Shown here: positions 25,906 to 36,396 of the stretch, in pieces
How positions within the stretch are numbered: position 1 is the first letter of the stretch
How the letters are laid out: each line of letters starts with the position of its first letter
Origin: Candidatus Eiseniibacteriota bacterium
GTDB taxonomy: Bacteria > Eisenbacteria > RBG-16-71-46 > CAIMUX01
DNA: 64,000 nt
Direction of reading: 5' to 3'
Assembly (NCBI GenBank): GCA_903844735.1
Contig: CAIMUX010000030.1
Span: forward strand, 1 to 64,000
The notes under the pieces: model-generated
Seen by the model: only the letters and a program-made list of their open reading frames with translations
Told to the model about the DNA's origin: nothing
The model's database searches: none
Translations under genes and position numbers: made by a program

Positions 25906-26664
25906 TCAGTGCAACGAGAACCGAATGGGAATCTGCACCCAAACCGCCACCGGTTTGTGCTGCTGCAGCGCCGGCTTGAAGGCCGCCCTCTTGACCGCGG
26001 CGATGGCCGCGTCGTTCAACATCGGGTGCCCTTCGGTAACGAAGGCGTCGCCGATCTTGCCCTCCTTCGTCACGAGTGCCCGAATCGTGACCACACCCTC
26101 AACCTCGGCGGCGCGGGCCATCTCCGGATAGACCGGCTGGGGCGGAGTGATCAGAACCGGCATTTCCTCCACGGCCACGAAATCGTCCGGCGACGGATTG
26201 TCATTGCCGAATTGCGAAGCATCGACGACCAGCGAGTCCCCCCCCGAATCAAGATTGCTGACATCCACCGGGGCAAGGGCCTCGGCTAGCTGATCGGTGG
26301 TGGCCAGACTCGTGTTCTGTGCCTGAAAATCGGGCACCGGCTCGGGCACGCCGATCGACGGCGGGGCGACCTGCGCCGCGATCGTCACCTGGGATACGTC
26401 GTTGTTTTGCGCGATCGATGGCGGCACGCCCATCTCGCGGTAGCTGACGACCTGAACCCTGCGCTCCCGCGCCTCCGGCTTAGGTTTCAGGTTTCGCCCG
26501 GCGAGCCAGCCCCCGAAGATCAGGATGTGGCACGACATGGCGGTGATGGCCCCGCGGTAGAACAGGCTGCGGTAGTGCTTCTTGAGAGGATGCGTTTCCC
26601 CGACGACCGGAAACACAGCGTCCGCGTCGAAAAGCCAGGGATCCGCTTTGGCCACGGTCTTCAT
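25906..26664 (-). CDS. tonB: TonB-type energy transducer
   Basis: A 252-residue protein with one membrane helix near residues 38-55 (AITAMSCHILIFGGWLAG), a periplasmic linker rich in Pro and Asp (about 75-165) and a C-terminal TonB domain of about 85 residues. That domain includes PVYPEMARAAEVEGVVTIRALV, the helix DAAIAAVKRAAFKPALQ and the final strand VWVQIPIRFSL. It transmits proton-motive energy from ExbB/ExbD to outer-membrane receptors, such as the TonB receptor encoded at 57108-59384. The N-terminal cytoplasmic region is longer than in E. coli TonB. The start overlaps the exbD stop by four bases. Confidence 0.93.
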   Translation of the reverse strand: MKTVAKADPWLFDADAVFPVVGETHPLKKHYRSLFYRGAITAMSCHILIFGGWLAGRNLKPKPEARERRVQVVSYREMGVPPSIAQNNDVSQVTIAAQVAPPSIGVPEPVPDFQAQNTSLATTDQLAEALAPVDVSNLDSGGDSLVVDASQFGNDNPSPDDFVAVEEMPVLITPPQPVYPEMARAAEVEGVVTIRALVTKEGKIGDAFVTEGHPMLNDAAIAAVKRAAFKPALQQHKPVAVWVQIPIRFSLH

Positions 26665-27155
26665 GGCAAGCCCTCCACCTCTTTGACATCCTCATCCTTC
26701 ATGGCGACGAGACTGAAGCGTTTCATTTGCGCGAGGTCCAGAGAGTCCATGATATCGACCATCATGTTATAGCTCGCGGTCCGGCTGACCTTGACCAGGA
26801 TGATGAGCTCCGGATTAAGCTTGAAGTTCTCCTGGAAGAGGTTCACGAGTCCGTTGAACTCCGCTGATTGGATGGCCCCGGTTCCCATTCGATAATAGAT
26901 CCTCTCGTCGGCTCGGACGAGCATCGTGAGGACATTCGACTCCGGAACCTGGACCTTCGAGTCCTTAGGCGGGAGATTGACCTCCATCGCCTGGGGCTTG
27001 CGGAAAACGGTCGTGACCATGAAGAAGATCAGCAGGAGAAAGGCCACATCCACCATCGGCGTCATGTCGATGCGGATCTTGACGCGCCGCTTGGGCCGGC
27101 GCAGCCCTCCCTTTTTGCCTTTGCCTGACGGTTCAGGTGTGTCTACGGCACCCAT
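26661..27155 (-). CDS. exbD: ExbD/TolR biopolymer transport protein (second copy)
   Basis: A 164-residue protein with a Lys/Arg-rich N terminus, one transmembrane helix carrying the conserved Asp in MTPMVDVAFLLLIFFM and a periplasmic ExbD domain (VPESNVLTMLVRADERIYYRM onward). It forms the proton channel and stator with ExbB. The N-terminal 25 residues are unusually basic (KGKKGGLRRPKRRVKIR). It lies 12 bases after the other exbD; paired ExbDs with different periplasmic domains are common in FCB-group TonB systems. Confidence 0.93.
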   Translation of the reverse strand: MGAVDTPEPSGKGKKGGLRRPKRRVKIRIDMTPMVDVAFLLLIFFMVTTVFRKPQAMEVNLPPKDSKVQVPESNVLTMLVRADERIYYRMGTGAIQSAEFNGLVNLFQENFKLNPELIILVKVSRTASYNMMVDIMDSLDLAQMKRFSLVAMKDEDVKEVEGLP

Positions 27156-33876: not shown

Positions 33877-36396
33877 ATGGGGCAGTCGCTGGCGTACATC
33901 CTTGGCCCCCTCGCGGCGGCGGCCTGGATCTGGGTACGTCCGCCGCGGAAGCTCGGGAGTGCGCTACTTCTCTGGGTCGCGGGGATCGTACTGGCGCGCG
34001 TCTTCCCCGGCATCGCGCCTGCGATGGTGGATCGTTGGGGAGTGGCAGGCGCCCTTCCCGGCCTCGCCGGACTCGTCGGAATCGGAGCGTGGCTTGGTGG
34101 GGTGTTCCTGCTGCGGGCCCTCTGGTATCTCGCTAACGCTGACCGCCCGCGCGGACGCGCCTATCGCTATATGGTGGCGGGGCTTGCCCTGGCGCTGGTT
34201 CTTCCGATCTTGGCACCGTCTGCCGCGCAGGCCTTTCTTCCGCTGGCCGTGCCCATGCTCTGGTCGTTCCGCTGGCGCAGGAGACTGGGGGCCGGCGCAC
34301 TCGCGCTTGCCAGCGTCGCGGCGCTGGTGTCGTTCCTCCTGGGCGTCGTCAAGTTCAGCGCCGGAGAGGGGAGCCCCGCAGGAGCCTCGGGCGGATTCGG
34401 GGCCTTCGTCAGTCAAGCCAGTCTGGCCGCCGCAGTCTACGCCTTGATTGCGCTTCCCGCGGCGGCCACGCGGATTCACCTCTCGATCCGGCGCGTCGGG
34501 CCGAGGTTGGTCGGCTCCCATCTGCTGGCTGCGCTTATCCCCTTCGTCCTGGGGATCGCGTTCATCCTGGGCGCAGGGGGGCTCTTCCTGGCTACGTATC
34601 GCGGCTCGCTGGCGGCTCGGCTGTTGATCCAGCAATCGGAACGCGCAAGAAACCGGCTTTCCGCGGCCTTTGTCGGCGATCTGGAGGGACCTCTCGATCT
34701 GTTCGGCGAAGGCCCGCGTCGACAGTTCGTCCTGGTTCGCGAGGGGAACAGCCCGACTCGAGTCTTCGGAGACCGCGGCGCCACCGGCTCCGTCGGCTCC
34801 CGCGGCGCCATCGGCTCCGTAGGATCCATCGACTTGCCGTTCTCAGCCGATGCCGGCCTGGTGTTCTCGCCCGATTCGCTTCTCAGGCAAGACGAGTCAT
34901 CCACCGATGTTCCGTTCCTCTGGGATGGCCGGACGTTGTTCCTCCGGGCGCGGTGGGACACAACGAGGTCCGACGCTCACGGCGTGCGCACGCCGGTGCG
35001 AATGGAGGCGCTGGCGGAAGTCGACTCGCTCTGGATGGCCCAACTAAGTTCCGTTCTTGGGGTGCCGGTACGCATCTCGCCTGTCGTTACCGTGGGCCGA
35101 AGCTCGCGCGGCGTCACGATCGGCCTGGGCGATGATGAATCCGAAGCCGTCGATAGCATGAAGACACCGGATGGTCGCGCCACACGACTAGCGGGAAACA
35201 CAGAGGATGTCAGGCCGCGTGGCGCCGAAGGCGCCATCGGGCCGGCGGATGGCCCCGGCTTTCGGTTGCCGGGCGGGGCCACCGTGCAATGCCTTCGCGT
35301 CTCTCCCGCAGGGTGGAGCCACCGGACGATTCCCGTGGCCGCATCCGCGTCGTTCGCCGAGAACCTGAGCTTCTTCTGGTCGGTCCCGCGCGACAATCCG
35401 ATCGCCTATGTCGTGCTGATCGCGCTTGCCGTCATCGCCTTCCTCTTCCTCACCGCCATCGCCGCAACGACCGTGATGGTGCTGGGAATGGGCCGCTCCG
35501 TCACCGGGGCCGTCCGGGCTCTCACCGCGGGAACGCGCGCACTCCGCGAAGGGAAGCTCGATCACCGGATCCCGGTGGAGGGAAGCGACGAACTGTGGGA
35601 CGTGGCCGCCTCGTTCAATGACATGGCCGACAACCTGGAACGAACCCGCGTCCGTGAGCTGGCGGCCCAGCGGATGGAGGAGGAGCTCCGCCTGGCCGGG
35701 ATCATCCAGGACCGGTTGCTTCCATCGAGCCCGCCGATGCTAGACCGGCTGGAGCTGGCTGGGATGAGCCTTCCTGCCCGCGAGATCGGAGGCGATTACT
35801 ACGACTACCTGCTGCTCGACGATGGACGACTCGGGCTCGCGGTCGCCGACGTGTCCGGGAAGGGGACACCCGCCGCACTGCTCATGTCGGCGTTCCGCGC
35901 GGCGCTGCGCAGCCAGGATCTGGGCGAGCTCGGTCCCGCGGAGGTCATGGCCCGCATCAACCGTTTCATCCATGAGAGTGTCGACCCGGGAAAGTTCATC
36001 ACCGCGTTCCTGGCGCTACTCGATCCCGCCACCGGGGAAATCCGGTATGCCAACGCGGGTCACGACGCGCCGCTGGTGGTGGCGAGCGATGGATCTGTCA
36101 CGGAGCTGACGGGAGGCGGGCTCATCCTCGGGATGTTGCCGCAGATCGTCTACGACGAGGCGGTGACGGTGCTCGATCGTGGCGCGCTGCTCGCGATCTT
36201 CACCGACGGAGTGACCGAGGCTCAGGACCCGGCGGGAGGGTTCTACGGTGCGGAGCGGCTGGCCGAGGTGCTGCAGCGACTTCGGGCGAGGCCTTGCGCG
36301 GATATTCTGCATGGCCTGACGGAGGAGATCGCTGCGTTTGCGGGAGAAGGGCCGCAGTCGGACGACATTACAGTAATTCTGGCGCGGCGGCCTTGA
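33877..36396 (+). CDS. Membrane-bound SpoIIE/RsbU-type PP2C phosphatase
   Basis: An 839-residue protein. Residues 1-250 contain about seven hydrophobic helices. An extracytoplasmic region follows (about 260-500), with a collagen-like Gly-x-x tract GATGSVGSRGAIGSVGS near 304-320. One more helix (VVLIALAVIAFLFLTAIAATT, about 510-530) leads to a HAMP domain (about 535-590) and a PP2C domain (about 610-839) with EIGGDYYDYLLLDDGRLGLAVADVSGKGTPAALLM, GHDAPLVVA and TDGVTEAQDP carrying the metal-binding Asp residues. The ATG follows AGGAGG by five bases. It probably dephosphorylates a STAS antagonist; the one encoded at 28341 is the nearest candidate. Confidence 0.92.
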   Translation: MGQSLAYILGPLAAAAWIWVRPPRKLGSALLLWVAGIVLARVFPGIAPAMVDRWGVAGALPGLAGLVGIGAWLGGVFLLRALWYLANADRPRGRAYRYMVAGLALALVLPILAPSAAQAFLPLAVPMLWSFRWRRRLGAGALALASVAALVSFLLGVVKFSAGEGSPAGASGGFGAFVSQASLAAAVYALIALPAAATRIHLSIRRVGPRLVGSHLLAALIPFVLGIAFILGAGGLFLATYRGSLAARLLIQQSERARNRLSAAFVGDLEGPLDLFGEGPRRQFVLVREGNSPTRVFGDRGATGSVGSRGAIGSVGSIDLPFSADAGLVFSPDSLLRQDESSTDVPFLWDGRTLFLRARWDTTRSDAHGVRTPVRMEALAEVDSLWMAQLSSVLGVPVRISPVVTVGRSSRGVTIGLGDDESEAVDSMKTPDGRATRLAGNTEDVRPRGAEGAIGPADGPGFRLPGGATVQCLRVSPAGWSHRTIPVAASASFAENLSFFWSVPRDNPIAYVVLIALAVIAFLFLTAIAATTVMVLGMGRSVTGAVRALTAGTRALREGKLDHRIPVEGSDELWDVAASFNDMADNLERTRVRELAAQRMEEELRLAGIIQDRLLPSSPPMLDRLELAGMSLPAREIGGDYYDYLLLDDGRLGLAVADVSGKGTPAALLMSAFRAALRSQDLGELGPAEVMARINRFIHESVDPGKFITAFLALLDPATGEIRYANAGHDAPLVVASDGSVTELTGGGLILGMLPQIVYDEAVTVLDRGALLAIFTDGVTEAQDPAGGFYGAERLAEVLQRLRARPCADILHGLTEEIAAFAGEGPQSDDITVILARRP

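What the first reader, a model, noticed from the sequence alone, without database searches (positions are those of the whole stretch)
25906..36396. Possible partner-switch control of a TonB motor
A STAS antagonist gene is coupled to exbB in a nine-gene operon with a PstS-like binding protein, a TPR protein and two coiled-coil anchors; a membrane PP2C phosphatase starts divergently. A signalling switch acting on ExbB/ExbD/TonB or its partners has not, to my knowledge, been described.
Basis: partly seen in the sequence, partly recalled or inferred. Interest (0 to 1): 0.6.

Follow-up and report, generated by a model that had tools for sequence, protein, structure and literature searches.

The report
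STAS switch protein on TonB motor
In several little-studied bacterial groups, a gene for a small switch-type signalling protein often sits right in front of the gene for the proton-driven motor that powers uptake through the outer membrane, which suggests that the motor may be switched on and off by a signal.

Summary
Window 25906-33421 (-) is a nine-gene operon: two coiled-coil anchors, PstS-like protein, TPR protein, STAS, ExbB, ExbD, ExbD, TonB. A HAMP-SpoIIE PP2C gene diverges at 33877 (+). It occurs in 31 of 34 Candidatus Eisenbacteria operons (17 with two STAS genes), in 18 of 80 named loci, and upstream of 101 of 150 listed exbB genes in the class of an Ignavibacteriales genome. It persists although PBP-TPR lies 5' in one group and 3' in the other. 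The switch serine (Asn-Ser) is invariant in 87 of 87 exbB-linked STAS; the nearest solved structures include SpoIIAA and RsbV. Close copies away from exbB lie beside SpoIIE-type PP2C genes (7 of 17), and one lies beside an RsbW-type kinase in a genome whose exbB operon lacks STAS. Against a full partner switch: no such kinase at any exbB locus examined, the PP2C neighbour is not conserved, the coiled-coil genes occur in two genomes only, the TPR protein looks periplasmic, and many related motors lack STAS. Best reading: an accessory, probably phospho-switchable STAS subunit acting on the cytoplasmic side of ExbB. Contact and phosphorylation are inferred.

The parts
32696..33421 (-). Coiled-coil anchor A: N-terminal hydrophobic helix plus coiled coil (ORF from TTG; the likelier ATG start is at 33328). 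Homologue found only in L037.
31711..32682 (-). Coiled-coil anchor B: N-terminal hydrophobic helix, long helix, Gly-rich C-terminal part of unknown fold. Homologue found only in L037.
   Evidence: fold prediction uninformative (pLDDT 46)
30650..31672 (-). PstS-like periplasmic binding protein with an N-terminal hydrophobic anchor
   Evidence: PBP_like_2 1.2e-15; phosphate-binding proteins in the PDB, best E 4.3e-11
28724..30631 (-). TPR protein with an apparent signal peptide (likely start 30601), expected in the periplasm
28341..28712 (-). Stand-alone STAS protein, 123 aa; switch Ser57 in LNSTGLG
27610..28344 (-). ExbB; its start overlaps the STAS stop as ATGA
27168..27617 (-). ExbD, first copy
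26661..27155 (-). ExbD, second copy
25906..26664 (-). TonB
33877..36396 (+). Membrane HAMP-SpoIIE (PP2C) phosphatase, divergent; neighbour in this genome only among the loci held, so its membership in the system is doubtful
   Evidence: one of 11 SpoIIE genes in the genome

Best explanation
The STAS protein is an accessory regulatory subunit of an ExbB-ExbD-ExbD-TonB motor. It probably docks from the cytosol on the cytoplasmic part of ExbB. Its invariant serine at the start of helix 2 is phosphorylated by a kinase encoded elsewhere (RsbW-type, or a Hanks-type kinase) and freed again by a SpoIIE-type PP2C. Phosphorylation would make it let go of ExbB, or of the kinase, and so set motor activity. 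Shown: gene linkage, invariant serine, SpoIIAA/RsbV-like sequence and predicted fold, and close copies placed beside PP2C or RsbW genes. Inferred: binding to ExbB, phosphorylation, and the direction of control.
For: STAS lies directly before exbB in 31 of 34 Eisenbacteria operons, 18 of 80 named loci and 101 of 150 listed exbB rows in another class, median gap 66 bp. The junction holds although PBP-TPR is upstream in Eisenbacteria and downstream in most Ignavibacteria/Kryptoniota/KSB1-type loci. Asn-Ser is invariant in 87 of 87 exbB-linked STAS. The profile aligns that Ser with the D-S/A-S site of the SpoIIAA chains (Ser58 by recall), and the best PDB hits are SpoIIAA, TM1442 and RsbV. The AF2 model (pLDDT 86) puts Ser57 at the start of helix 57-72, and the 14 best Foldseek rows are anti-sigma-antagonist or STAS entries. 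Copies of the same STAS away from exbB lie beside SpoIIE-type genes in 7 of 17 loci and nest among exbB-linked STAS in at least three places. In G016 the exbB operon lacks STAS (L039), but an exbB-type STAS, up to 62% identical, abuts an RsbW-type gene (L190).
Against: No RsbW-type kinase is encoded in any exbB locus examined. The PP2C next door in the window is not conserved. Many homologous motors lack STAS: Bacteroidia, Chlorobi, Zixi-, Latesci- and Gemmatimonadota loci, and 17 of 18 informative rows out of 20 sampled from the 49 with no listed STAS. A Ser/Thr at this site is also conserved in STAS proteins where phosphorylation has not been shown, such as MlaB (passages of PMC7367683). In another tree the window's STAS and L037's group with the rsbW-linked clade, so exbB-linked STAS may not be one lineage.
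Confidence: 0.45

Rival explanations
1. STAS is a permanent, non-switching subunit that stabilises or assembles ExbB, in the way MlaB holds MlaF in MlaFEDB. The serine is kept for packing or the interface, not for phosphorylation.
For: MlaB is a STAS subunit of an envelope transport machine; its Thr52 is conserved although phosphorylation is unproven (passages of PMC7367683). STAS sits with exbB, not with a kinase. Tandem STAS genes in 17 of 34 Eisenbacteria operons would fit a structural heterodimer.
Against: The sequence and fold neighbours are SpoIIAA/RsbV, and MlaB is not among the PDB hits at E up to 0.001. Close copies lie beside PP2C genes.
Confidence: 0.27
2. STAS works in transcription control (anti-anti-sigma) and is merely co-transcribed with the motor genes, reporting or adjusting their expression.
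For: RsbW-type kinases and separate rsbV-rsbW pairs exist in the same genomes. In one search the window STAS groups with rsbW-linked STAS. Many related operons carry a histidine kinase and/or an NtrC-type regulator upstream, so regulators do collect here.
Against: Through the rearrangement of PBP-TPR it is the STAS-exbB junction that stays. The separate rsbV-rsbW pair of the window's own genome could serve sigma control (L187).
Confidence: 0.2
3. The divergent membrane PP2C (33877-36396) is the specific phosphatase of this STAS and the window is a local complete input module.
For: It is divergent and nearby, and only 11 SpoIIE genes occur in this 5.4 Mb genome, so the neighbourhood is unlikely a priori. 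Elsewhere PP2C genes do sit next to such STAS copies.
Against: It is absent from the other 33 Eisenbacteria operon loci within the flanks held, including the closest one, L037. The chance argument is after the fact.
Confidence: 0.08

Closest known systems
MlaB in the MlaFEDB lipid transporter (E. coli)
   Same: A stand-alone STAS protein acting on the cytosolic side of an energy-driven envelope machine; conserved Ser/Thr at the same place (passages of PMC7367683).
   Different: The target is an ABC ATPase, not an ExbB proton channel; the sequence here is nearer to SpoIIAA/RsbV.
SpoIIAA/RsbV partner-switch antagonists with SpoIIAB/RsbW and SpoIIE/RsbU
   Same: STAS fold, serine at the start of helix 2, close copies beside SpoIIE-type PP2C or RsbW genes.
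   Different: Here the gene is tied to exbB; kinase and phosphatase are not part of the operon.
TonB-ExbB-ExbD-ExbD operons with PBP and TPR genes in Bacteroidota and relatives
   Same: Same core genes.
   Different: Bacteroidia, Zixi-, Latesci- and Gemmatimonadota versions lack the STAS gene; Chlorobi loci lack STAS, PBP and TPR in the flanks held.

Membership tests
ExbBD-TonB motor | ExbB, ExbD and TonB_C domains encoded together | tested here: met
   all above Pfam cut-offs
Partner-switching module (RsbV/RsbW/RsbU type) | STAS antagonist of the SpoIIAA/RsbV group with serine at the start of helix 2 | tested here: met
Partner-switching module (RsbV/RsbW/RsbU type) | RsbW-type kinase encoded with the STAS gene | tested here: not met
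   none at exbB loci; such kinases elsewhere in 47 of 47 genomes; one exbB-type STAS beside rsbW in G016 (L190)
Partner-switching module (RsbV/RsbW/RsbU type) | PP2C phosphatase encoded with it, conserved | tested here: not met
   present in the window only; 0 of 33 other Eisenbacteria operon loci in the flanks held; but 7 of 17 second copies elsewhere have one
Partner-switching module (RsbV/RsbW/RsbU type) | Serine phosphorylation changes the binding partner | not testable with these tools
   needs biochemistry
MlaB-type STAS subunit | Sequence kinship to MlaB above that to SpoIIAA/RsbV | tested here: not met
   eight PDB sequences at E up to 0.001, none named MlaB
MlaB-type STAS subunit | Direct binding to the energising subunit | not testable with these tools
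   no complex prediction available
Pst phosphate transporter | PstS with PstC/A/B genes | tested here: not met
   PstS-like protein only; the ABC genes scanned nearby are branched-chain type

The most novel reading that the evidence does not exclude
Ser/Thr-phosphorylation partner switching directly throttles a TonB-ExbB-ExbD motor: unphosphorylated STAS binds ExbB and gates proton flow or force transmission, a kinase encoded elsewhere releases it, and PP2C sensors reset it. This would be a post-translational clutch for outer-membrane uptake in bacteria of the FCB group (Eisenbacteria, Ignavibacteria, Kryptoniota, KSB1 and relatives).
Probability: 0.33. Interest if true: 0.82.

Novelty: new variant of a known kind. 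Interest (0 to 1): 0.6.

Why it matters
Ton motors are usually treated as running whenever there is proton-motive force and controlled by gene expression only (recalled). A conserved cytosolic signalling subunit would give them fast control and would carry the STAS principle, known for sigma factors and one ABC transporter, to a proton motor of the MotA/TolQ/ExbB family. The four paper searches that paired ExbB with STAS-type, partner-switching or PstS/TPR terms and one that paired STAS with MotA stators listed no paper on such a link, judged from titles and abstract beginnings.

Tried and rejected
STAS fusion proteins (STAS with any of the other operon proteins): none among the ORFs of 120 loci. 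STAS-less Zixibacteria loci: a different membrane protein fills the gap, the one scanned having no Pfam family. Kinase or PP2C genes near the motor in other genomes: the weak SpoIIE/RsbW hits upstream in L086, L087, L094, L096, L100 and L102 proved to be histidine kinases by Pfam, so I withdrew them as PP2C evidence. Absence of kinase as a refuting test: uninformative, since all genomes have RsbW-type kinases. Single origin of exbB-linked STAS: the trees disagree (clusters them, moves the window STAS to the rsbW-linked clade; AU p 0.056 without and 0.448 with L190), so I do not claim it. On the ExbB tree the STAS label needs 8 changes, at least 3 of them forced by starred branches. Structure of coiled-coil protein B: model too poor to use. 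A first attempt at a kinase profile used a wrong frame and was redone. Rows dropped or doubled: three of the 80 named loci (L092, L101, L108) have exbB at the contig edge without STAS and count as misses in 18 of 80; L089, L093 and L098 appear to be the same genomes as G027, G021 and G034, so they overlap with the 34; the class loci were thinned to every third row or every second, Eisenbacteria rows L040-L069 to every second, identical STAS rows were merged, L074-L076 were left out of the trees as doubles of other loci, four edge loci (L092, L101, L108, L165) and the three doubles were left out, and the long-branch row L188 was left out.
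Full report
What is there. On the minus strand of the window nine genes run head to tail: two coiled-coil anchors, a PstS-like binding protein, a TPR protein, STAS, ExbB, ExbD, ExbD, TonB. The STAS stop codon and the exbB start overlap (ATGA at 28344-28341). A HAMP-SpoIIE gene starts divergently at 33877.

Conservation in the phylum. Operon-type ExbB (E below 1e-49) is found in 34 of 47 genomes of the phylum held; 12 of the other 13 have only distant ExbB relatives and one has no match at E up to 1e-20. In the window's own order only 2 of 11 genomes have it (G000 and G004), and in its family 1 of 3. STAS directly precedes exbB in 31 of the 34 operons, 17 of them with two STAS genes in tandem; it is absent from L039, L056 and L068. 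The typical order is PBP-TPR-STAS-ExbB-ExbD-ExbD-TonB. The coiled-coil genes have homologues only in L037, and no SpoIIE gene is near the other 33 operons in the flanks held, many of which are short.

Conservation outside. The one scan of named genomes gave 80 loci. STAS precedes exbB in 18 of 80, 15 of them outside Eisenbacteria: records named Bacteroidetes/Bacteroidota, Ignavibacteria, Kryptoniota, KSB1 and unnamed bacteria. There PBP and TPR mostly follow TonB instead of preceding STAS, so the order has changed around a constant STAS-exbB junction. Loci of Bacteroidia, Chlorobi, Zixibacteriota, Latescibacterota and Gemmatimonadota lack STAS. In the class of G055, 220 of 294 genomes have this ExbB at E up to 1e-40. 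Of the 30 best loci 29 have STAS upstream, and of the 150 listed exbB rows 101 have a listed STAS upstream, gap 37-296 bp, median 66. From the other 49 rows I fetched 20: 18 had enough upstream DNA, one has a divergent STAS (L227) and 17 have none. STAS is thus common but not obligatory.

The switch residue and fold. Asn-Ser is invariant in 87 of 87 exbB-linked STAS, and the Glu-Thr of the motif GGxETDEL is present in 86 of 87; rsbW-linked STAS keep the serine (14 of 14) but mostly not the Glu-Thr. The closest solved sequences are SpoIIAA (E 3.2e-13), TM1442 and RsbV. The AF2 model is good (mean pLDDT 86.2), with Ser57 at the start of a helix, and its 14 best Foldseek rows are anti-sigma-antagonist or STAS entries.

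Signalling partners. RsbW-type HATPase genes occur in 47 of 47 phylum genomes (46 over the cut-off) and in 15 of 15 STAS-bearing genomes outside the phylum, but at none of the exbB loci examined. Separate STAS-rsbW pairs exist, for example in the window's own genome (L187). In G016, whose exbB operon has no STAS (L039), a STAS of the exbB type, up to 62% identical to exbB-linked ones, abuts an RsbW-type gene (L190). In the class of G055 I fetched 20 further STAS loci: 3 turned out to lie before exbB, and of the other 17, seven (L207, L208, L209, L210, L212, L214, L221) lie beside a SpoIIE-type gene; the three that I scanned are GAF-SpoIIE proteins, and L207 also has a protein kinase gene. In a tree these copies nest among exbB-linked STAS in at least three places. 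I take this as the best available sign that this STAS group is a PP2C substrate.

A second layer. An NtrC-type regulator homologous to that of L087 lies upstream of exbB in 32 of 163 exbB loci compared; in 21 of them STAS lies between, and in 11 it does not. A homologous histidine kinase was seen further upstream in eight of the 32, the named loci with longer flanks. The six upstream kinases scanned have HAMP, PAS, HisKA and HATPase_c domains, and L087's regulator has a sigma-54 interaction domain. This was not seen in Eisenbacteria. It suggests that expression of the motor is controlled too, and it keeps the transcriptional rival alive.

Phylogeny. With 105 columns the STAS trees are weak. 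One search puts exbB-linked STAS, with L190 among them, apart from the Eisenbacteria rsbW-linked ones. The fuller one search puts the window STAS and L037 next to the rsbW-linked clade (98/89). The AU test does not settle it (p 0.056 without L190, 0.448 with it). On the ExbB tree of 122 rows the STAS state needs 8 changes. Gain, loss and exchange between motor and kinase contexts have probably happened several times.

How it would work. TPR and PBP begin with signal-type or anchor segments (by eye), so in the cytosol STAS can meet ExbB and the short N-termini of ExbD and TonB. The most economical model is that STAS docks on ExbB and its serine phosphorylation by a distant kinase, reversed by PP2C, changes that contact. 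Binding and phosphorylation are inferred, not shown. The closest working analogue is MlaB, which binds the ABC ATPase MlaF; there a Thr52Glu change weakened binding but phosphorylation is unproven (passages of PMC7367683).

Literature. Searches that joined ExbB with STAS, anti-sigma factor antagonist or partner-switching, a search for the PBP-TPR operon and one for STAS with MotA stators listed no paper on such a link; I read the listings only. In PMC12204202, on the evolution of TonB/TolA force transducers, the word STAS does not occur (find in the main text).

Noticed in passing
L078, L086, L087, L094, L096, L097, L100, L102; L162-L186 in part; L227; L229-L238 in part; L242: An NtrC-type regulator, with a histidine kinase before it in the eight named loci with longer flanks, stands upstream of exbB in 32 of 163 loci compared, with or without STAS in between.
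   Followed up: partly
L041 11923-14287, L047 10133-11672, L048 3-2352, L052 387-2674: In four Eisenbacteria loci of family f11 a second, distant ExbB-ExbD-ExbD(-TonB) set follows directly downstream.
   Followed up: no
L095 6182-6874; L082, L088, L099, L112, L113, L121, L134, L136: In these loci (most named Zixibacteriota) a 230-346 aa multi-pass membrane protein with a conserved YIGFEV-like motif near its start precedes exbB, in the place where STAS stands elsewhere; the one scanned (L095) has no Pfam match.
   Followed up: partly
window 31711-32682: Coiled-coil protein B ends in a Gly-rich, beta-looking stretch after a long helix; it might link the membranes, but the fold prediction failed.
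   Followed up: partly
L207-L210, L212, L214: Second STAS copies stand beside SpoIIE-type PP2C genes; in L207, L209, L210, L212 and L214 a gene with a protein-kinase-like start lies close by (Pfam-checked in L207 only).
   Followed up: partly
L068 (G013): This Eisenbacteria genome's operon has the PBP-TPR-last order and its ExbB groups with KSB1-type loci, suggesting horizontal transfer.
   Followed up: no
L106: A record titled Alphaproteobacteria carries a Bacteroidales-type operon; probably a binning error.
   Followed up: no
window 20674-23697: A 1007-aa protein with a PPDK_N domain and a weak receiver-like N-terminal part.
   Followed up: no
window 36450-37475 and 37913-43056: A Fib_succ_major protein next to a branched-chain amino-acid-type ABC transporter operon.
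   Followed up: no
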